This document shows positions 7,125-30,308 of a stretch of 32,055 nt of DNA, in pieces. A model generated the notes under the pieces. That model did no database searches. It was not told the origin of the DNA and worked only from the letters and a program-made list of their open reading frames with translations. The stretch covers positions 1 through 32,055 of the forward strand of contig WLOB01000008.1 in assembly GCA_009699505.1 (NCBI GenBank), read 5' to 3'. Made by a program: the position numbers and the translations under genes. Position 1 is the stretch's first letter. Every line of letters starts with the position of its first letter. Source of the stretch: Actinomycetota bacterium (GTDB lineage Bacteria; Actinomycetota; Thermoleophilia; Solirubrobacterales; Solirubrobacteraceae).

Positions 7125-7206
7125 CCGGGTGCGCCGTCGCCGCCGCGCGTCGGCCACCGGGACCACGGCCGCGCCCACCCGCGCAGCCGACCACGAGGAG
7201 GAGCAC

Positions 7207-8349
7207 ATGAGCACCACCGAGAGCGCCCCGGCCACGGCCGGGGACACGGGCCGGCTGACCGGCATCATCGACAGCGACGTCCACCCGAACTTCCAGAACG
7301 GGCTCCAGGACCTCCACGACTACATGCCGGCCGCCTGGCGCAAGAAGCTCGGCATCGGCGGCGGGGCGAGCTGGTCGAGCCGCTTCGCGGCCTCGTCCTA
7401 CGTGCTGCCGCTGGACTACCTCTACATCAACTCCGCCGGGGCCTACCGCGACGACGCGATCCGCGACGGCCAGGCGCCGGCGACCGACGCGCGCTTCACC
7501 GCCGAGCAGCTCTTCGACGGCCACGGCATCGACATCGGCGTGCTGATCGCCGGGCACCTCTTCGGGATCGGGGCGTTCCCGGACCCCGACGTCGCCGCGA
7601 CCGTCGCCTCGGCCTACAACGAGTGGATGTGCGAGCGGTGGCTGCAGGTCGACCCGCGCTACCGCGGCGCCATGGTCGTCGCCCCGCAGGACCCGGCGCT
7701 GGCGGTCAAGGAGATCGAGCGGATGCAGGGCCGGCCCGGGATCGTCTCGATCTTCCTGCCGCTCCACGACATCCTCCACGGCGAGCGGCACTACTACCCG
7801 ATCTACGAGGCCGCGCAGAAGCACGGCCTGCCGATCACGGTGCACCCCAGCGGCACCGAGAACGTGTTCGCCCGCGCGCCGCGGATGGCGGGGACGCCGA
7901 CGTACTACATCGAGTGGCACACGGCCCTCAGCCAGATCCACCAGTCCAACGTCCTCAGCCTCGTCTGCCACGGCGTCTTCGAGCGCTTCCCGGAGCTCAT
8001 GTACGTGATCGCCGAGGGCGGCTTCGCCTGGGCGGCCGAGATCATGTGGAAGCTCGACCGGGACCAGAAGGGCCTCGGCGACGAGGTCCCGTGGCTCAAG
8101 CTCGCACCGAGCGACTACATCCGGCGCAACGTGCGGTTCACGACGCAGCCGATGGTCGAGCCGGCGAAGAAGGAGCACCTGCCCGTGCTCCTCGACATGG
8201 TCTGCGCCGAGGAGACCCTGATCTTCTCGAGCGACTACCCGCACTGGGACTTCGACGAGCCGCGTCGCGCCCTGGCCGGCGTCCCGAAGGACCTGCTGCG
8301 GAAGATCTGCGTCGACAACCCGCGCGCCCTGTACGGCGGGCGACTCTAG
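7207..8349 (+). CDS. Amidohydrolase-2 (ACMSD-like) family protein
   Basis: IIDSDVHPNF metal-binding start, ITVHPSGTEN, YVIAEGGFAWAAEIMWKLDRD, LIFSSDYPHWDFD; GAGGAGG RBS upstream of ATG 7207. Confidence 0.85.
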   Translation: MSTTESAPATAGDTGRLTGIIDSDVHPNFQNGLQDLHDYMPAAWRKKLGIGGGASWSSRFAASSYVLPLDYLYINSAGAYRDDAIRDGQAPATDARFTAEQLFDGHGIDIGVLIAGHLFGIGAFPDPDVAATVASAYNEWMCERWLQVDPRYRGAMVVAPQDPALAVKEIERMQGRPGIVSIFLPLHDILHGERHYYPIYEAAQKHGLPITVHPSGTENVFARAPRMAGTPTYYIEWHTALSQIHQSNVLSLVCHGVFERFPELMYVIAEGGFAWAAEIMWKLDRDQKGLGDEVPWLKLAPSDYIRRNVRFTTQPMVEPAKKEHLPVLLDMVCAEETLIFSSDYPHWDFDEPRRALAGVPKDLLRKICVDNPRALYGGRL

Positions 8350-8358
8350 GGGGACGGG

Positions 8359-8805
8359 ATGCGCACGAGCACGAGCACCACCGCGGCCGGCGCCGGGCCG
8401 GCCGGTGCCGCCGGGGGGACCGGCGGCCGGGCACGGCGGGCCCCCACCCGCGTCGTCGTCGACCGCCTCGAGGCGGTCCCGCCCGGCACGACCAGGATCG
8501 TCGAGGTCGGCGGCCGGTCGATCGGCGTCATCAACGACGGCGGGCGGCTGCACGCCCTGCGCAACGTGTGCCCGCACCACGGGGCGCCGCTGTGCGACGG
8601 CCGCGTCCAGGGGTTCATGCGGCCCTCCGCGCCGCACGTCTACGAGTACACGGGCGAGGACGCGGAGGACCGCGTGCTGCTCTGCCCGTGGCACGGCTAC
8701 AAGTTCCGGCTCTCGGACGGGCGGTCGCTCGCCGACCCGGAGACCTCGCGGGTGCGGACCTACCGCGTCGAGGTCGAGGACGGGGACGTCGTCCTCTACG
8801 TCTGA
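8359..8805 (+). CDS. Rieske [2Fe-2S] protein with a long spacer between ligand motifs
   Basis: NVCPHHGAPLC...LLCPWHGYKFRLSDGRSLADPETSRVRTYRVEVEDGDVVLYV; the two Rieske ligand pairs CxH and CxxH are present. Confidence 0.85.
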   Translation: MRTSTSTTAAGAGPAGAAGGTGGRARRAPTRVVVDRLEAVPPGTTRIVEVGGRSIGVINDGGRLHALRNVCPHHGAPLCDGRVQGFMRPSAPHVYEYTGEDAEDRVLLCPWHGYKFRLSDGRSLADPETSRVRTYRVEVEDGDVVLYV

Positions 8806-17559: not shown

Positions 17560-19137
17560 TCAGTCGGCCGGGGCCACGGCGACCATGACCTCGGTCGCCT
17601 CGGAGCGGCCGCGGAGCTGCTCGGACGCGTGTGAGGTCCACTGCCGCGCCTCCTCCGGGTCGGCGCGGGCGACGAGGCGGCCCGACGCGGCCAGGAGGCC
17701 CGGCACCTTCTTCGCGACCTCGGTCAGGCGCGCGGCCTCGTTCACCGGGTCGCCGATCACCGTGTACTCGTAGCGGTGCTCCGCGCCGATGTTCCCGGCG
17801 ACCGCCTCGCCGCCGGACACGCCGATGCCCGCGCGGGTCTCCGGGACCTCGTCGGCCAGGCGCCGGGCGAGCTCGCGACCGGCGCGCAGCGCGTCCGTCG
17901 GCGCGTCGGGCCGGTCGACGGGCGCCCCGAAGACGACGAGGGCGGCGTCGCCCTCGAACTTGTTGACCCACCCGCCGTGGGCCTCGACGACGTCGATGAC
18001 GACGGCGAAGAAGCGGTTGAGCAGCTCGACGACCTCCGTCGGCGGGCGGCTCGAGGCGAGCTCCGTCGAGCCGATGAGGTCGACGAACAGCGCGCAGACG
18101 TCGCGGACCTCGCCGCCGAGCTGCAGCTCGCCCTGCTCCAGGGCGGACCGGGCGACCTCCTCGCCCACGTGCCGGCCGAACAGGTCGCGGACGTGCTCGC
18201 GGTCGCGCAGGCCTTCGACCATGCGGTTGAAGCCGTCCTGCAGCAGGCCGATGTCCGTGCCGTCGTAGACCTTGACGCGGGTGTCGAGCCGGCCGTGGCG
18301 GACCCGCTCGAACGACGTGCGCAGCGTGCGCAGCGGCACCGCGACCGCGCGGGCGGCGAGGAACTCCGCGACGAGGCCGACGAGGAGCGCGATCGAGCCG
18401 AGGACGACCATCGCGATCGCCAGCTGCTGCGCGTCGGAGCGCGGCGAGACGAGGTCGATCAGCCCGATCAGCACGATGCCCAGGACGGCGCTGCCCGTGG
18501 CGGACGCCCAGGTGAGCAGCTGCCGCAGGGTCACGCCGGGCAGCACCGTCCGGGTGAGCTGCCGCGCCGCCAGGGCGTAGGCGGCGGTCCGGCGCATGAC
18601 GCGCTCGCTGATCAGGTACGCGACCGCGGTCATCGTGATCCCGGTGAACAGCACGGTCACGCCGACCGCCACCGCCAGGCGCCCGGAGTACCGCGCGTTG
18701 AAGAGCGTGAACACGACGAGCGCCGCGAGCCAGAAGAGCGCGACGAAGCCCGTGACCTGCAGCGGGGCGCGCAGGACGCCGCGCTGCTCCGCGGCGGTCG
18801 GGTCGCGTCCGGCCCGCAGCCACTCCCACCGCGACCGGGTCGTCCGGACCGACCAGAGGATCACGGACAGGACCATCACCAGCAGGAAGACGCCGAGCAC
18901 GACGACGTTCGGGATCACCGGGTTGTCGCCGTCCGGCGCGCTCGCGCCCGGGATGACGAGCCAGCAGAGGATCACCACGACGGCCGCGGCGCCGAGGTTC
19001 GTCGCCACGAGGACGAGGGCCAGCAGCGCGTTGGACCCCGCGACCTGGGCGCTGCGGCGGCGCTGCTTCCCGCGTGATCGCTCGGGGTCCGGCGCCCCTG
19101 CCGCGCGACCCGCGTCTCGTGCAGGGTGGCGCGCCAT
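17560..19137 (-). CDS. Membrane class III adenylate/guanylate cyclase with HAMP domain
   Basis: Several N-terminal TM segments; HAMP-like PLRTLRTSFERVRHGRLDTRVKVYDGTDIGLLQDGFNRMVEGLRDRE; cyclase motifs CALFVDLIGSTELA, NKFEGDAALVVFGAP, YTVIGDPVNEAARL. Confidence 0.92.
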   Translation of the reverse strand: MARHPARDAGRAAGAPDPERSRGKQRRRSAQVAGSNALLALVLVATNLGAAAVVVILCWLVIPGASAPDGDNPVIPNVVVLGVFLLVMVLSVILWSVRTTRSRWEWLRAGRDPTAAEQRGVLRAPLQVTGFVALFWLAALVVFTLFNARYSGRLAVAVGVTVLFTGITMTAVAYLISERVMRRTAAYALAARQLTRTVLPGVTLRQLLTWASATGSAVLGIVLIGLIDLVSPRSDAQQLAIAMVVLGSIALLVGLVAEFLAARAVAVPLRTLRTSFERVRHGRLDTRVKVYDGTDIGLLQDGFNRMVEGLRDREHVRDLFGRHVGEEVARSALEQGELQLGGEVRDVCALFVDLIGSTELASSRPPTEVVELLNRFFAVVIDVVEAHGGWVNKFEGDAALVVFGAPVDRPDAPTDALRAGRELARRLADEVPETRAGIGVSGGEAVAGNIGAEHRYEYTVIGDPVNEAARLTEVAKKVPGLLAASGRLVARADPEEARQWTSHASEQLRGRSEATEVMVAVAPAD

Positions 19138-21756: not shown

Positions 21757-23457
21757 TCAGGACGCGACGTCGGCCCGGCGGTCGCCCGCGGCGGACCGCG
21801 GCGCGACCGCTGGCGGCTCCCGGTCGGCGACCGGCGGGCGCTCGGCCACCGGGACGGCTGCGGGCAGGTCGCCCGCCCAGGGCAGTCGCAGGCTCGACGG
21901 CAGGACCGCCCCGCGGCCGAGGCGGCGCTCGACGGCGACGAGCACCGCGAAGGCCATGGGTCCGAGCTCGCGCAGGGACTGGTGGCGGTTCTGGCGGGAG
22001 CCGAGGTCGACCTCGGCCAGCGCGTCGAGGCCGACGAGCTCGAGGGCGTCGATCAGCGTGGCGATCTCGACGCCGTAGCCGACGGGGAACGGCAGGCGGA
22101 CCAGCAGGGAGCGCCGCGCGGCGAACTCGCCCGCGAGCGGCTGCCGGAAGCCCGCCAGCAGCGGGTGGTGGTGGTTCAGGAGCGGACGGGCGGTCAGCTC
22201 GGTGACGCGCCCGCCGTCGTGCGGCGAGAGCGTCCCGTCGTCCTCGCGGCGGTGCCGCGCGAAGCAGCCGCGGACCATCGCGACGGCGTCGTCCGTCAGG
22301 AGCGGGCCGAGGACCCCGGCGAGGTGCGCCGGTGTCGGGTCCTCCGTGTCGCCGTCGAGGAACGCGACGACGTCGCAGTCCGTGGCCTGCAGCGCCCGCC
22401 ACATCGCGTCGCCCTTGCCGCGGCACGGGCCCGCGCCCGGCACGAGGTCGTCCTGCTGCAGCACGCGGGCGCCGTGGGCCGCGGCGACGGCGGCCGTGCC
22501 GTCCGCCGAGGCGGCGTCCACCACGAGCACCTCGTCGACGACCCCGGCGTCCCGGAGCGGACCGACGGTCCGGGAGAGGACGCCGCCGATCGTGCCGGCG
22601 ACCTCCTTCGCGGGGACGACCACCGCGACGCGGAGGCCCCGGCGGGTCGCGGCCGCCGCCAGGCGCGGGACGTCGAACTCGTCGTGGACGTAGCGCCGCT
22701 CGGCCCGCCAGGACTCGAGGGCCAGGTCGACCGCCAGCCCGCGGGCCGCCCGGCCGGTCGTCCGGGGGCTCGTGTGCACGACGGCGGCGGCGGTGCGGTG
22801 GACGGCGAGCCCCGCGCCGCGGACGGCGTCGAGGAGCGCCTCGTCCTCGAGGGCCGGCGGCGTGGGCATGCCGCCGCACGCCTCGTAGGCGTCCGCCGTG
22901 ATCGCGAGGTTCGCGGCGGAGAAGTGGTGGTGCGGGGCGCCGGGGCCGTCGACGTCGCGGACCGCCGCGAGGCGCACGACGGCCGCGGAGGCGCGCCGGC
23001 GTGCCGCCTCCGGACCCAGGCCGCGGGCGGGGTCGATCCGCACGTCGCCCGCGACGACGTCGTGGCCGTCGTCCGCGGCCCGCAGCAGCGCGGCGAGCCA
23101 GCCCGGCGTCGGGCGCGTGTCGGCGTCCGTGCTGACCACGAGGCCGCCGCGCGCGGGCGGCAGCGCCGCGTCGCGTCGCAGCCAGGTGCAGGCGGCGTCC
23201 ATCCCGACCCGGCGCGCCCAGCCGACGCCCGAGCCGGGACCCGTCACGACGCGGACCGGGACGCCGCGCCGCGCCGCCCCGACGGCCCGGCCGCGGGCCA
23301 CGGCCGCCGTCCGGTCGGTCGAGCCGTCGTCGACGAGCAGGACGCCGAAGCAGCGGCCGACCTCGTCGACCTGGTCGACGAGCGCGTCCAGGGTCGGGCC
23401 GATCAGGGCCTCCTCGTCCCGGGCGGGGACGACGACGACGGCGCGCAGCCGGCTCAT
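21757..23457 (-). CDS. Fusion of an N-terminal GT2 glycosyltransferase and a C-terminal GpgS-like (glucosyl-3-phosphoglycerate synthase, GT81) domain
   Basis: N-domain: VVVPARDEEALIGPTLDALVDQ, LLVDDGSTDRTAA, VVSTDADTRPTPGWL, HHFSAANLAITADAYEACGGMP. C-domain: VAVVVPAKEVAGTIG, GKGDAMWRALQATDCDVVAFLDGD, GGRVTELTARPLLN, QPLAGEFAARRSLLVRLPFPVGYGVEIATLIDALELVGLDALAEVDLGSRQNRHQSLRELG. ATG 23457 overlaps the methyltransferase stop. Confidence 0.9.
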   Translation of the reverse strand: MSRLRAVVVVPARDEEALIGPTLDALVDQVDEVGRCFGVLLVDDGSTDRTAAVARGRAVGAARRGVPVRVVTGPGSGVGWARRVGMDAACTWLRRDAALPPARGGLVVSTDADTRPTPGWLAALLRAADDGHDVVAGDVRIDPARGLGPEAARRRASAAVVRLAAVRDVDGPGAPHHHFSAANLAITADAYEACGGMPTPPALEDEALLDAVRGAGLAVHRTAAAVVHTSPRTTGRAARGLAVDLALESWRAERRYVHDEFDVPRLAAAATRRGLRVAVVVPAKEVAGTIGGVLSRTVGPLRDAGVVDEVLVVDAASADGTAAVAAAHGARVLQQDDLVPGAGPCRGKGDAMWRALQATDCDVVAFLDGDTEDPTPAHLAGVLGPLLTDDAVAMVRGCFARHRREDDGTLSPHDGGRVTELTARPLLNHHHPLLAGFRQPLAGEFAARRSLLVRLPFPVGYGVEIATLIDALELVGLDALAEVDLGSRQNRHQSLRELGPMAFAVLVAVERRLGRGAVLPSSLRLPWAGDLPAAVPVAERPPVADREPPAVAPRSAAGDRRADVAS

Positions 23458-24047
23458 CGCTCGAAGGCGTCGAGCAGGTAGCCCCGCTCGTGGTCGGCGG
23501 CGGGCAGGGGGACGGCGCGCAGGCCCGTGGACCGCAGGGCGTCGTGGGTCGCGGCGGCGCTCCGGGCGAGGTCGTCGGCGCGCCCGGTCCAGTGGACGGC
23601 GACGAGGCGGCCGCCGTCCGTCAGGAGCTCCGGCAGGAGGCGCAGGGCGCGGTCGAAGGCCGCGTCGGGCAGGTAGTAGAGGATCTCCGACGCGACGACC
23701 ACGTCGTACCGGCCGTCCGCCGGGAGGTCGTCGGGCACGCTGCCCTCGAGGATCTTGACGTGCGCGCTGCCGGAGAGGCGCTCCCGGGCGATCGCCACGG
23801 CGGTGGGGGAGAAGTCGATCGTGGTCAGCCGGGCGCACCGGGGGGCGAGCTCGGCGGAGAGGACGCCGGTGGCCGCGCCGAGCTCGAGGACCGCGCCCAG
23901 CCCGTCCGGCCCGCAGGCCTCGACGGTGCGGGCCCGCTTCTCCTGCTCGTAGGCCGAGGAGCGGTAGTCCCACGGGTCGGCGTCCTCGCGGAACTTCGCG
24001 TCGAAGTGCCGGGCGTCCGCGGGCACCGGGCGGTCCGCGGCGCTCAC
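23454..24047 (-). CDS. NodS-like class I SAM-dependent methyltransferase
   Basis: HFDAKFREDADPWDYRSSAYEQEKRARTVEAC (N-terminal DPW...YE...K pattern of the NodS family), VLELGAATGVLSAELAPRCARLTTIDFSPTAVAIARERL, YDVVVASEILYYLP. 4-bp overlaps on both sides. Confidence 0.88.
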   Translation of the reverse strand: MSAADRPVPADARHFDAKFREDADPWDYRSSAYEQEKRARTVEACGPDGLGAVLELGAATGVLSAELAPRCARLTTIDFSPTAVAIARERLSGSAHVKILEGSVPDDLPADGRYDVVVASEILYYLPDAAFDRALRLLPELLTDGGRLVAVHWTGRADDLARSAAATHDALRSTGLRAVPLPAADHERGYLLDAFER

Positions 24048-25054
24048 CGGCCCTCCTCGCGGAGCGCGTGGCCGACCCGCACGGCGGCGGGCGTCAGCCG
24101 GTGCTGGAGGAGCAGCAGGTCGAGCTCGGCGCGCGCCCGGGCGACGTCATCGTCGACCGCCATCGGGTGCGAGCCCGTCAGCTCGGCGCACGCGCGCAGC
24201 GCCTCGCGGCAGCGCTCCGTGACCTCGAGCCGGGCCAGCAGGATCGTCCGCGGGGCGGACGCCGGGTCCTGCTCGAGCACGTGGACGGCGTGGTCGAGCC
24301 ACAGGTCGACGGACGCCCGGGCGGCGTGGGCGCGGGCCAGGAGCGCGGCCTCGGCGTCGGAGACCGGGCGGGCCCGGACGGCGGCCGTGGTGCCGTCGAC
24401 GACGTGGTCCAGCGCGCCCGCCCACGTGACGGCGGTGCGCAGCGCGTCGCCGCCGAACCACGGCTCGGTCAGGAGGGCGCTGCGGCCGTCGTCCGCCGAC
24501 CGGAGCGTCGCCAGCACGGGGGCGCGGTCCAGGCGGACGCGGTGGCTCGCGCTCGAGCGCAGCACGTCGCCGCGCCACCAGCCGCGGTCGACGACGGCGC
24601 GGTCGGGGTCGGCGACGTCGAGGAGGACGCAGACGGACTCCGCGGGCCGGTCCTCGCGGCGGACGAGGACGAGCGCGCGCCGCACGAGCCCGGCGCCCGA
24701 GCAGAAGACCTTCGTGCCCGACACGGTGGCCCCGCCGGCGTCGATCGACGCCGGCTCGCCCTCGTCACCGCGCGGGTCGGCGCCCCACACGCCGTGCGGG
24801 ACGGTCCCCGAGGCGGCGGCGGCCCGGTCCTCCCCGGCGACGTCCTCGGGCCGGTGGCGCAGCAGGCGCTCCAGGGCGTTGCGGTGCCCGTCGAGGACCC
24901 GTCCCAGGCCGAGGTCGCCGGCGGCGACGGCGCGCAGCGCACGGTGCTCGGCCGCGCGGGTGGCGAAGGCGTCGCCCGCCGCGAGGCCGGCGAGGACGAC
25001 CGCGTCCCAGCCCGGGACGACGGCGGCACCGGGGGCGTCGTGGAGCGTGCTCAT
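24044..25054 (-). CDS. Divergent acyl-CoA dehydrogenase-like protein
   Basis: GVWGADPRGDEGEPASIDAGGATVSGTKVFCSGAGLVRRALVLVRR resembles the ACAD middle domain; helical C-terminus; no recognisable YEG(T/G)xQ-like terminal motif. Overlaps the deacetylase stop by 4 bp. Confidence 0.7.
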   Translation of the reverse strand: MSTLHDAPGAAVVPGWDAVVLAGLAAGDAFATRAAEHRALRAVAAGDLGLGRVLDGHRNALERLLRHRPEDVAGEDRAAAASGTVPHGVWGADPRGDEGEPASIDAGGATVSGTKVFCSGAGLVRRALVLVRREDRPAESVCVLLDVADPDRAVVDRGWWRGDVLRSSASHRVRLDRAPVLATLRSADDGRSALLTEPWFGGDALRTAVTWAGALDHVVDGTTAAVRARPVSDAEAALLARAHAARASVDLWLDHAVHVLEQDPASAPRTILLARLEVTERCREALRACAELTGSHPMAVDDDVARARAELDLLLLQHRLTPAAVRVGHALREEGR

Positions 25055-25668
25055 CGGGCGGCCACCACCGGGGCGGTCGGGTGGTGCGCGCCGGCCGGGT
25101 CCGGCAGGGCGGTCAGGGCGAGGTCGCGCCGCGCCGCCCACGCCGCGGCGAGGGGGACGAGCGCGACGGTCCCGGCGCAGTCCGCGCGGGTGGCCCCGGG
25201 TCCCAGGCCGTCGTGGGCGAGCACGATGCCGCCGTCCGGGGCGTCCCGCGCGATCCGGTCGAGCCCGTCGGCGGGCGGGTCGCCGCGCCAGTCGTGCGTG
25301 TCGGCGTCCCAGCCGACGAGGGAGAGGCCGAGCTCGTCGGCCACGGTCCACGTCGCCTCCGTGGTCCGTCCCCACGGCGTCCGCCACCAGGACGGGGAGG
25401 CGCCCGCGCCGGCCAGCGCGTCCAGCGCCCGTGTGCAGTCGTCTCGGAGCTCGGCGAGGGTCAGGCGGTCGTGGCGGACGTGCCGGTGCGCGTGCAGCTC
25501 GACGCGGTGGCCGGCGGCCAGGGCGTCCCGGACGATGCCGGGGTGCCGCGCCACCGACGGCCCGAGGACGAAGAACGTGGCGGTCGCGCCGGCCGCGGCC
25601 AGGGCGTCGAGGACGGCGGGCGTCGACCCGGGGGAGGGCCCGTCGTCGAAGGTCAGGTGCAGAGCCAT
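25051..25668 (-). CDS. Cytoplasmic polysaccharide deacetylase (CE4, NodB homology domain)
   Basis: HLTFDDGPSPGSTPAVLDAL, ATFFVLG, VELHAHRHVRHDRLT, WWRTPWGRTT, GWDADTHDW, IVLAHDG; no signal peptide ahead of the catalytic motif. Confidence 0.88.
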   Translation of the reverse strand: MALHLTFDDGPSPGSTPAVLDALAAAGATATFFVLGPSVARHPGIVRDALAAGHRVELHAHRHVRHDRLTLAELRDDCTRALDALAGAGASPSWWRTPWGRTTEATWTVADELGLSLVGWDADTHDWRGDPPADGLDRIARDAPDGGIVLAHDGLGPGATRADCAGTVALVPLAAAWAARRDLALTALPDPAGAHHPTAPVVAAR

Positions 25669-29018: not shown

Positions 29019-30308
29019 TCAGCCGTGCGGCGAGTCGGGACCGCCGCGGCGCGCGACGACGGCGACCACGAAGAGCATCAGGGCGACGGCGGCGAGCGCC
29101 ACGACGATGCCGCGGACGGGGTGGCTCTCGCTCAGCTGCGACGCGGACACCGGGGCCAGGCTGCTCCGGTCGCGACGCGCCTCGTCGGCGAGGCGGTCGG
29201 CGGCCGGATCGACCGGCGCGGTCGGGAAGACCGCGGACATGCGGACCCCGGAGGACCGGGAGCCCGTGAAGCCGCCGGCGCCGCCCGTGCCCGTGGCGCC
29301 CCAGGGGTCCCCGGCGCAGCGCACCGGGGCGGCGCCGGACCCGCGGGTCCCGGTCACGCCGTTCGCGGGCGTCCAGGCGGGGAACGGGTCCGTCGCGTAG
29401 CCGTCGGTCGTGGGGCGGGCGGCGGCCCCGCGCGACCGCGGGACGGCGGACCCGGCACCGGCGCCGTAGCCGTCCTGGGTGGGTCCGGCGGCACTGCCGC
29501 CGGTGCCGTCGCCGCCGGGACGGGCCGCGCCGCCGGAGCCGTCGACGGCGGGGTCGGACGCGGAGCCGCCGGTACCGGACGAGGCGCCGGAGCCGCTCGC
29601 GCCGGGGCCGGACGCCGTGCCGGAGCCGGACCCGGCGGACGCGCCGTAGCCGTCGCCGGTCGGATCGGTCACCGCGCCGGCGCCGTCGGCGTCGGGCCCG
29701 GTCGAGGCGCCGTAGCCGTCCTCGGTCGGGCCGGCGGGGCGGCCGTCCGAGCCGCTCGCAGAGGAGGAGGAGCCGCCAGAGCCGGCCGAGGAGGCCGCGC
29801 CGCCGGCGGAGGACGAGCCGCCGCCGGTCGAGGAGGACGAGGGGGTGCCCGAGCCGCCCGCGGGGGAGCCGGTGCCGGCCGTGCCGGCCGCGCCCGAGCC
29901 GCCGTAGCCGTCGGAGGTGGGGTCGGACGCGCCGGCGCCGTAGCCGTCCGCGCCGGAGGAGCCCGCGCCGTCGGCGGCGCTGCTCGCGGGGGCGCGGGGG
30001 TCGAGGCCCGCGCCGTAGCCGTCGGCGGTCGGGTCGAGGGGGTCGGCGGTGCCGTTGCCGTCGGCGGTCGGGTCCGCGGACGCGCCGTAGCCCGAGGCGG
30101 TCGGGCCGGCGGGGAGGCGGGCCGCGGCGGTCGCCGCGAAGGACCCGGCGGGGGCGCAGGGCATCGCTGCGACCCGCGTGACGACGTCCTTCGTGACGCC
30201 GCCCGTGACGACGGCCCCCAGGGCGCCGAGCGCCGACAGCAGGCCGAGCACGACGAGGACGACCACGACCCCTCCACGGCGCCGGGCGCCGAGCGCCCGG
30301 GAACTCAT
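29019..30308 (-). CDS. Repeat-rich protein with N- and C-terminal hydrophobic segments
   Basis: Predicted TM at both ends (GVVVVLVVLGLLSALGALGAVVTGG; GIVVALAAVALMLFVVAVVARR) flanking degenerate PTxDGYGA(S/G) repeats. Confidence 0.75.
   Translation of the reverse strand: MSSRALGARRRGGVVVVLVVLGLLSALGALGAVVTGGVTKDVVTRVAAMPCAPAGSFAATAAARLPAGPTASGYGASADPTADGNGTADPLDPTADGYGAGLDPRAPASSAADGAGSSGADGYGAGASDPTSDGYGGSGAAGTAGTGSPAGGSGTPSSSSTGGGSSSAGGAASSAGSGGSSSSASGSDGRPAGPTEDGYGASTGPDADGAGAVTDPTGDGYGASAGSGSGTASGPGASGSGASSGTGGSASDPAVDGSGGAARPGGDGTGGSAAGPTQDGYGAGAGSAVPRSRGAAARPTTDGYATDPFPAWTPANGVTGTRGSGAAPVRCAGDPWGATGTGGAGGFTGSRSSGVRMSAVFPTAPVDPAADRLADEARRDRSSLAPVSASQLSESHPVRGIVVALAAVALMLFVVAVVARRGGPDSPHG
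29398..30090 (-). repeat. Degenerate PTxDGYGA-coding repeats (recurrent GCCGTAGCCGTC on + strand)
   Basis: GCCGTAGCCGTC recurs near 29463, 29643, 29709, 29911, 29938 and 30013, with a diverged copy near 30090. Confidence 0.75.

What the first reader, a model, noticed from the sequence alone, without database searches (positions are those of the whole stretch)
21757..23457. GT2 glycosyltransferase fused to a GpgS-like domain in one polypeptide
Seen: two complete nucleotide-sugar-transferase-like domains in one ORF. The C-terminal half carries GGRVTEL.ARPLL, QPL.GE.AARR, LPF..GYGVEI.TLID and GLDA.A.VDLG.R..R.QSL.ELG, matching what I recall of mycobacterial GpgS (Rv1208). Established: GpgS starts glucosylglycerate/methylglucose lipopolysaccharide synthesis and is usually stand-alone. 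Notable departures: the N-terminal motif reads PAKEV rather than PALNE, and the metal motif is DGD rather than DSD. This may mean altered donor/acceptor specificity and channelling between the two active sites.
Basis: partly seen in the sequence, partly recalled or inferred. Interest (0 to 1): 0.78.

Follow-up and report, generated by a model that had tools for sequence, protein, structure and literature searches.

The report
Two sugar transferases fused in one
A Patulibacter-like soil bacterium joins two sugar-attaching enzymes, one of them the enzyme that starts glucosylglycerate synthesis, into a single protein, and the same pair travels with an undescribed set of sugar-modifying genes across a whole branch of Actinomycetota, which points to an unknown glucosylglycerate-linked product.

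Summary
One 566-aa minus-strand ORF (21757-23457) encodes an N-terminal GT2 domain and a C-terminal GT81 glycosyl-3-phosphoglycerate synthase (GpgS equivalog, 342 bits against a cutoff of 262). It is not an assembly error: the isolate Patulibacter minatonensis DSM 18081 has the same fusion at 71% identity, and 29 distinct fused loci were collected. The fused GpgS domains lie in one well-supported clade, suggesting one fusion followed by repeated loss of the N-domain. The 'departures' (PAKEV, DGD) are ordinary: they match the Rubrobacter xylanophilus MpgS/GpgS subtype.

The unnoticed part is the operon: NodB-like deacetylase, acyl-CoA-dehydrogenase-fold flavoprotein (closest folds DnmZ/KijD3), NodS-like methyltransferase, and usually an NAD(P)H-FAD reductase, conserved in Thermoleophilia and Rubrobacteria. 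In other lineages an unfused GpgS of a different clade lies directly upstream of the same operon. All 26 of 399 Thermoleophilia genomes with the cluster carry a GT81 enzyme (149/399 overall). I infer that GpgS supplies a glucosyl(phospho)glycerate to this pathway, whose product is probably an N-modified amino-sugar glycoside (unproven). In some Rubrobacteria the fused GpgS has lost its catalytic residues. New variant of a known kind.

The parts
21757..23457 (-). Whole fused gene, GT2 domain + GT81 GpgS/MpgS-like domain, 566 aa
22738..23457 (-). N-terminal GT2 (GT-A fold) domain, residues 1-240; PARDE, DAD (111-113), LEDE (203-206) invariant or nearly so in 24 relatives
   Evidence: Pfam PF00535 E 1.6e-25; alignment A2
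21868..22716 (-). C-terminal GT81 domain, residues 248-530; K-D-E triad, DxD, GGRVT acceptor loop, PLAGE, YGVE, Met269 kept
   Evidence: NF010496 342 bits; RxMpgS phmmer E 2e-72; residue table; Foldseek 3o3p E 1.8e-28
22696..22737 (-). Junction: predicted continuous helix, residues 241-254, shared by the end of the GT2 domain and the N-terminal helix of GpgS; no separate linker
   Evidence: DSSP of the model, pLDDT 83-95 there; match to Mh GpgS begins at residue 242
23454..24047 (-). NodS-like SAM methyltransferase, 197 aa, overlaps the fused gene by ATGA
   Evidence: PF05401 NodS 71 bits, cutoff 24; NF041650 72 bits, below its cutoff of 300; alignment A5
24044..25054 (-). Acyl-CoA-dehydrogenase-fold flavoprotein, 336 aa, probably a flavin monooxygenase/N-oxygenase rather than a dehydrogenase
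   Evidence: profile best PDB DszC E 3e-8, DnmZ 0.0075; model pLDDT 90.0, Foldseek best DnmZ/KijD3 2.7e-11/7.2e-11
25051..25668 (-). NodB-like CE4 deacetylase, 205 aa; TFDDGP, HxxxH, WRxPWG and VLxHD motifs invariant in 8 orthologues
   Evidence: PF01522 E 6e-26, TIGR04243 NodB 106.6 bits, below its cutoff of 240; alignment A4

Best explanation
The gene encodes a bifunctional enzyme. Its C-terminal domain is a catalytically competent GT81 glycosyl-3-phosphoglycerate synthase of the Rubrobacter MpgS/GpgS subtype, which would transfer glucose (possibly mannose) from a nucleotide sugar to 3-phosphoglycerate. Its N-terminal domain is a second, soluble GT-A glycosyltransferase (GT2) acting in the same pathway. 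SHOWN by sequence: the fusion is real, both domains keep their catalytic motifs, the gene ends a conserved NodB/ACAD-fold/NodS operon, and GpgS is tied to that operon by fusion, by adjacency and by co-occurrence. INFERRED (about 0.3): glucosyl(phospho)glycerate, or its dephosphorylated form, is the acceptor or primer to which the GT2 domain adds an N-acetylated sugar. The NodB-like enzyme then frees the amine, and the ACAD-fold flavoprotein (with its reductase in most lineages) and the NodS-like methyltransferase oxidise and N-methylate it, giving a small cytosolic N-modified glycoside. The fusion, with no linker and a shared helix, holds the two transferases in fixed geometry on the GpgS dimer.
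For: Equivalog-level GpgS match and RxMpgS as nearest structure by sequence and by fold. All Mt GpgS catalytic and acceptor residues listed in PMC2581804 (K114, D134, D136, G184-T187, L209, Y229, E232, M269) are present here and in 25 of 29 fusions in all. The fused GpgS form one clade with 10 stand-alone ones, support 99/98. One of these, G369/L110, still has an in-frame GT2 remnant. NodB-ACAD-MT-(FAD reductase)-GT2 is conserved in about 40 loci. An unfused GpgS of a different clade lies 60-130 nt upstream of NodB in L038, L039, L043, L052 and L058. All 26 Thermoleophilia genomes with a strong cluster match have a GT81 gene, against 149 of 399 overall (Fisher 1.7e-12, 4e-6 by genus). 25 of 26 further genomes checked have a match to RxMpgS (one of them only weak). 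The ACAD-fold model is nearest to the amino-sugar N-oxygenases DnmZ/KijD3.
Against: No activity or metabolite has been measured. Donor and acceptor of the GT2 domain are unknown, with no close solved relative (ArnC E 1e-4). No GpgP phosphatase was seen conserved in the cluster (not searched genome-wide). Several Rubrobacteria keep the operon with a degenerate or missing fused GpgS, relying at most on a stand-alone MpgS, so physical fusion is not essential. The reductase has no clear orthologue in Patulibacter. Co-occurrence counts are not corrected for phylogeny beyond the genus level.
Confidence: 0.62

Rival explanations
1. The C-domain is simply the housekeeping GpgS (compatible solute or polysaccharide primer). 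Its fusion to a GT2 of an unrelated operon gives co-expression only, with no shared pathway.
For: In Patulibacter and several other genomes the fused copy is the only strong GpgS match. The two functions come apart in G002, L062/G394 and G369, where GpgS and the cluster are on different contigs.
Against: GpgS of a different clade sits upstream of the same operon in other lineages. Seven genomes hold a fused GpgS beside a stand-alone one (G188, G350, G315, G331, G122, G152, G161), so the fused copy is not merely the housekeeping gene. Co-occurrence is 26 of 26.
Confidence: 0.22
2. The C-domain has changed acceptor or donor so far that it no longer makes GPG/MPG, and the fusion makes a different glycoside.
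For: Glu54 to Val, Ser81 to Ala and Arg101 to Gln relative to Mt GpgS, at donor-nucleotide positions.
Against: The substitutions at 54 and 81 are those of RxMpgS, and the acceptor loop GGRVT and PLxGE are unchanged.
Confidence: 0.12
3. The C-domain is on the way to becoming a pseudoenzyme that only scaffolds the GT2 domain or dimer.
For: This has happened in Rubrobacteraceae (L050, L059, L060, L077, G624): Lys114, DxD and GGRVT lost but the domain retained.
Against: In the window and in 24 other fusions every catalytic residue is kept.
Confidence: 0.03
4. Artefact: frameshift or misassembly joining two genes.
For: The source is a fragmented assembly (533 contigs).
Against: Same fusion in isolate and complete genomes, continuous GC3.
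Confidence: 0.01

Closest known systems
Rubrobacter xylanophilus MpgS/GpgS (GT81; PDB 3f1y, 3kia, 3o3p)
   Same: Nearest solved structure by sequence (E 2e-72) and fold (1.8e-28); same residue type at the positions where Mt GpgS differs, except position 101
   Different: Stand-alone enzyme; Glu rather than Gln at position 101; its close orthologues are the stand-alone copies of Rubrobacteria that also own the operon
Mycobacterial GpgS (Rv1208, GT81)
   Same: GT81 fold, K-D-E network, DxD, GGRVT, PLxGE, YGVE
   Different: Stand-alone; Glu54, Ser81, Arg101 and His258 differ; used for methylglucose lipopolysaccharide; about 37-40% identical
Tandem GT-A glycosyltransferases such as chondroitin polymerase K4CP (2z86, 2z87)
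   Same: Two GT-A domains in one polypeptide; Foldseek aligns the whole length
   Different: About 15% identity; a processive polymerase; no GT81 domain
Rhizobial NodB/NodS/NodC Nod-factor synthesis
   Same: Combination of GT2, CE4 deacetylase and NodS-like methyltransferase
   Different: NodB and NodS scores far below equivalog cutoffs; no NodA seen; adds an ACAD-fold flavoprotein, an FAD reductase and GpgS; the GT2 domain is short and shows no membrane part
Amino-sugar N-oxygenases DnmZ/KijD3 (ACAD fold)
   Same: Nearest folds to the operon's ACAD-like protein
   Different: Shorter (336 against about 400 aa), about 18-22% identity; function untested
Bifunctional MpgS/MpgP fusions (recalled from literature, not tested here)
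   Same: A glycosyl-phosphoglycerate synthase fused to a second enzyme
   Different: Partner there is the phosphatase; here a second glycosyltransferase

Membership tests
GT81 glucosyl-/mannosyl-3-phosphoglycerate synthase | Equivalog HMM NF010496 above cutoff | tested here: met
   342.1 against 262 bits, residues 248-518
GT81 glucosyl-/mannosyl-3-phosphoglycerate synthase | DxD metal motif and Asp134-Lys114-Glu232 network | tested here: met
   K, D-G-D and E at the equivalent positions
GT81 glucosyl-/mannosyl-3-phosphoglycerate synthase | 3-PGA carboxylate site GGRVT (Val186, Thr187) and PLxGE loop | tested here: met
   GGRVT, PLAGE
GT81 glucosyl-/mannosyl-3-phosphoglycerate synthase | Metal-site His258 in the beta8-alpha9 loop | tested here: inconclusive
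   Asn at 258 and His at 260, exactly as in RxMpgS
GT81 glucosyl-/mannosyl-3-phosphoglycerate synthase | GT81 GT-A fold | tested here: met
   Foldseek 3o3p 1.8e-28, TMt 0.81
GT81 glucosyl-/mannosyl-3-phosphoglycerate synthase | Nucleotide sugar + 3-PGA activity, homodimer | not testable with these tools
   needs protein
GT2 glycosyltransferase (N-domain) | PF00535 match, GT-A fold, DxD | tested here: met
   E 1.6e-25; DAD 111-113 invariant in 24 rows
NodB chitooligosaccharide deacetylase | CE4 motifs | tested here: met
   TFDDGP, HxxxH, WRxPWG, VLxHD
NodB chitooligosaccharide deacetylase | TIGR04243 equivalog cutoff | tested here: not met
   106.6 against 240 bits
NodS N-methyltransferase | NF041650 equivalog cutoff | tested here: not met
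   72.3 against 300 bits
Sugar nitrososynthase (DnmZ/KijD3) | ACAD fold, nearest to these enzymes | tested here: inconclusive
   best Foldseek hits, but 22% identity and other flavoproteins score alike
Acyl-CoA dehydrogenase | Pfam ACAD domains above cutoff | tested here: not met
   only the middle domain, 18.4 against 33.3 bits

The most novel reading that the evidence does not exclude
An undescribed actinobacterial pathway makes an N-oxidised and/or N-methylated amino-sugar glycoside built on glucosyl- (or mannosyl-) glycerate, with the fused GT2-GpgS protein doing two successive glycosylations on one scaffold.
Probability: 0.27. Interest if true: 0.72.

Novelty: new variant of a known kind. 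Interest (0 to 1): 0.5.

Why it matters
Glucosylglycerate is known as a compatible solute and as the primer of mycobacterial methylglucose lipopolysaccharide. A conserved operon that repeatedly captures GpgS, by fusion in one clade and by adjacency in another, suggests a third use for it in Thermoleophilia and Rubrobacteria, stress-tolerant and poorly studied soil bacteria. It gives a small set of enzymes that can be reconstituted to find the product. The Rubrobacteria in which the fused GpgS domain has lost its catalytic residues yet is retained give a natural test of catalytic against structural roles.

Tried and rejected
Altered specificity from PAKEV/DGD as a peculiarity of this protein: rejected, shared with RxMpgS and neighbours. 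Misassembly or frameshift: rejected. A single fusion clade made only of fused genes: rejected, AU p 8e-7, because stand-alone genes nest inside it. One common origin of fused and operon-upstream GpgS: disfavoured, AU p 0.032, a test made after seeing the tree, so only suggestive. A search of plasmids gave only Rubrobacter indicoceani for the ACAD-like protein and nothing for the GT2 domain. Full-text searches found no paper describing the fusion or the gene set (open-licence papers only).

Full report
OBSERVATION. The ORF is real: minus strand 21757-23457, 566 aa, ATG start overlapping the upstream stop. Pfam finds GT2 in the N-terminal half. NCBIfam finds glucosyl-3-phosphoglycerate synthase (NF010496) in the C-terminal half at 342 bits, above the curated 262. 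GC by codon position is the same through the junction. AlphaFold2 models two confident GT-A domains (pLDDT 89.3, pTM 0.86), and Foldseek places the C-domain on R. xylanophilus MpgS (1.8e-28) and mycobacterial GpgS. The full-length match among the best 50 is to the tandem transferase K4CP, at about 15% identity.

THE 'DEPARTURES'. Residue roles were taken from the Mt GpgS structure paper (PMC2581804) and mapped by alignment. Lys114, Asp134, Asp136, Gly184-Thr187, Leu209, Gly211, Glu212, Tyr229, Glu232 and Met269 are all kept. The window differs from Mt at 52, 54, 81, 101, 112, 210, 258, 260 and 261. It has the RxMpgS residue at 54, 81, 210, 258, 260 and 261, a basic residue like RxMpgS at 52 (Lys against Arg), and departs from both at 101 (Gln here, Glu in RxMpgS, Arg in Mt) and 112. 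PMC2581804 names Gln66 of Rhodothermus MgS as guanine-binding at the Arg101 position and Ser210 as part of discrimination against mannose. The window has Gln101 and Ala210, so use of GDP-sugars or mannose is plausible, but this is inference. X in DxD is G, A, S or T across relatives.

HOW COMMON. In 399 Thermoleophilia genomes, 149 have a match at 1e-20. Seventeen have a full-length fusion and three more are cut by contig ends. A phylum sample adds the Rubrobacteraceae forms. With the ACAD-like profile as bait, 42 loci were found in the genome collection, all Actinomycetota: Patulibacter, Conexibacter, Paraconexibacter, Solirubrobacter, Rubrobacteraceae and others.

THE OPERON. Upstream of the fused gene, with overlapping or abutting ends, lie a NodB-like CE4 deacetylase (25051-25668), an ACAD-fold protein (24044-25054) and a NodS-like methyltransferase (23454-24047). 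In most other loci an NAD(P)H/FAD oxidoreductase (Pyr_redox_2) lies between the methyltransferase and the GT2, as annotated on a Rubrobacter indicoceani plasmid. Patulibacter has no close orthologue of it (best 32-40%). CE4 motifs are invariant. The ACAD-like protein fails the Pfam ACAD cutoff, has DszC and DnmZ as sequence relatives and DnmZ/KijD3 as the closest folds, so it is more likely a flavin monooxygenase or amino-sugar N-oxygenase than a dehydrogenase (inference).

EVOLUTION. A tree of 58 GT81 domains puts all 29 fused ones and 10 stand-alone ones in a starred clade. Without the four degenerate rows the clade (25 + 10) has support 99/98, and 'fused rows only' is rejected. The simplest reading is one fusion followed by repeated loss or separation. 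G369 (L110) still carries an in-frame piece of the GT2 domain before its GpgS, and G002, in the window's own genus, has the two halves on separate contigs. Six GpgS genes of cluster-bearing genomes fall in another group; in five of them the gene is directly upstream of NodB (L038, L039, L043, L052, L058), which suggests a second, independent association (AU p 0.032, post hoc). In Rubrobacteraceae (L050, L059, L060, L077, G624) the fused GpgS domain has lost Lys114, DxD and GGRVT yet is kept at full length. Most of these genomes hold a stand-alone MpgS 75-81% identical to RxMpgS (in G624 in two pieces); G779 (L059) shows no other copy.

CO-OCCURRENCE. All 26 Thermoleophilia genomes with a strong ACAD-cluster match have a GT81 gene (Fisher 1.7e-12; 4e-6 counting 14 genera). 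With two weak matches included it is 27 of 28. Of 26 further genomes, chosen because their locus had no intact fused GpgS, 25 match RxMpgS; for G015, which has no cluster, that match is only a weak GT hit, and G781 has none.

MECHANISM. Shown: the fusion, intact catalytic residues, the conserved operon, the genetic link. Inferred: the C-domain makes GPG (or MPG); the GT2 domain elongates it or a derivative with an N-acetylated sugar; NodB-like deacetylation exposes an amine; the ACAD-fold and NodS-like enzymes modify it. Order, donor and product are not established. The junction is a predicted continuous helix without a linker, which fits a rigid pairing. Channelling is neither shown nor excluded.

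VERDICT. A real, recurrent two-domain architecture inside an undescribed gene set. The family membership of each domain is ordinary; the combination and the operon are the news.

Noticed in passing
L050:12301-13965, L059:7275-8936, L060:12721-14409, L077:12701-14374, L134:8290-9920: Rubrobacteraceae fusions keep a full-length GpgS domain that lacks Lys114, DxD and GGRVT: a retained pseudoenzyme domain, usually beside a stand-alone MpgS in the same genome.
   Followed up: partly
L035:6820-8148: G015 has an orphan fused gene with a shortened, degenerate GpgS part, no ACAD-like gene in the genome and no NodB/MT within the 15 kb read, and only a weak GT hit elsewhere: apparent decay after loss of the operon.
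   Followed up: partly
L110:9800-11300: G369 carries an in-frame, internally shortened GT2 remnant in front of an intact GpgS: a fossil of the fusion.
   Followed up: yes
L079:12874-17525: The operon (without GpgS) lies on a 170-kb plasmid of Rubrobacter indicoceani, so it may move horizontally.
   Followed up: no
G624:C1:982083-982908: The stand-alone MpgS of this Rubrobacteraceae genome matches in two pieces with different open frames, possibly a frameshift.
   Followed up: no
window 29019-30308, minus strand: Predicted exported low-complexity protein with many repeats of the kind PTxDGYG; no Pfam match.
   Followed up: no
window 17560-19137, minus strand: Membrane protein with HAMP and class III nucleotide cyclase domains.
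   Followed up: no
window 7129-8805, plus strand: Amidohydrolase (PF04909) followed by a Rieske ferredoxin, with acyl-CoA dehydrogenase and thiolase-like genes nearby: looks like an aromatic-degradation locus.
   Followed up: no
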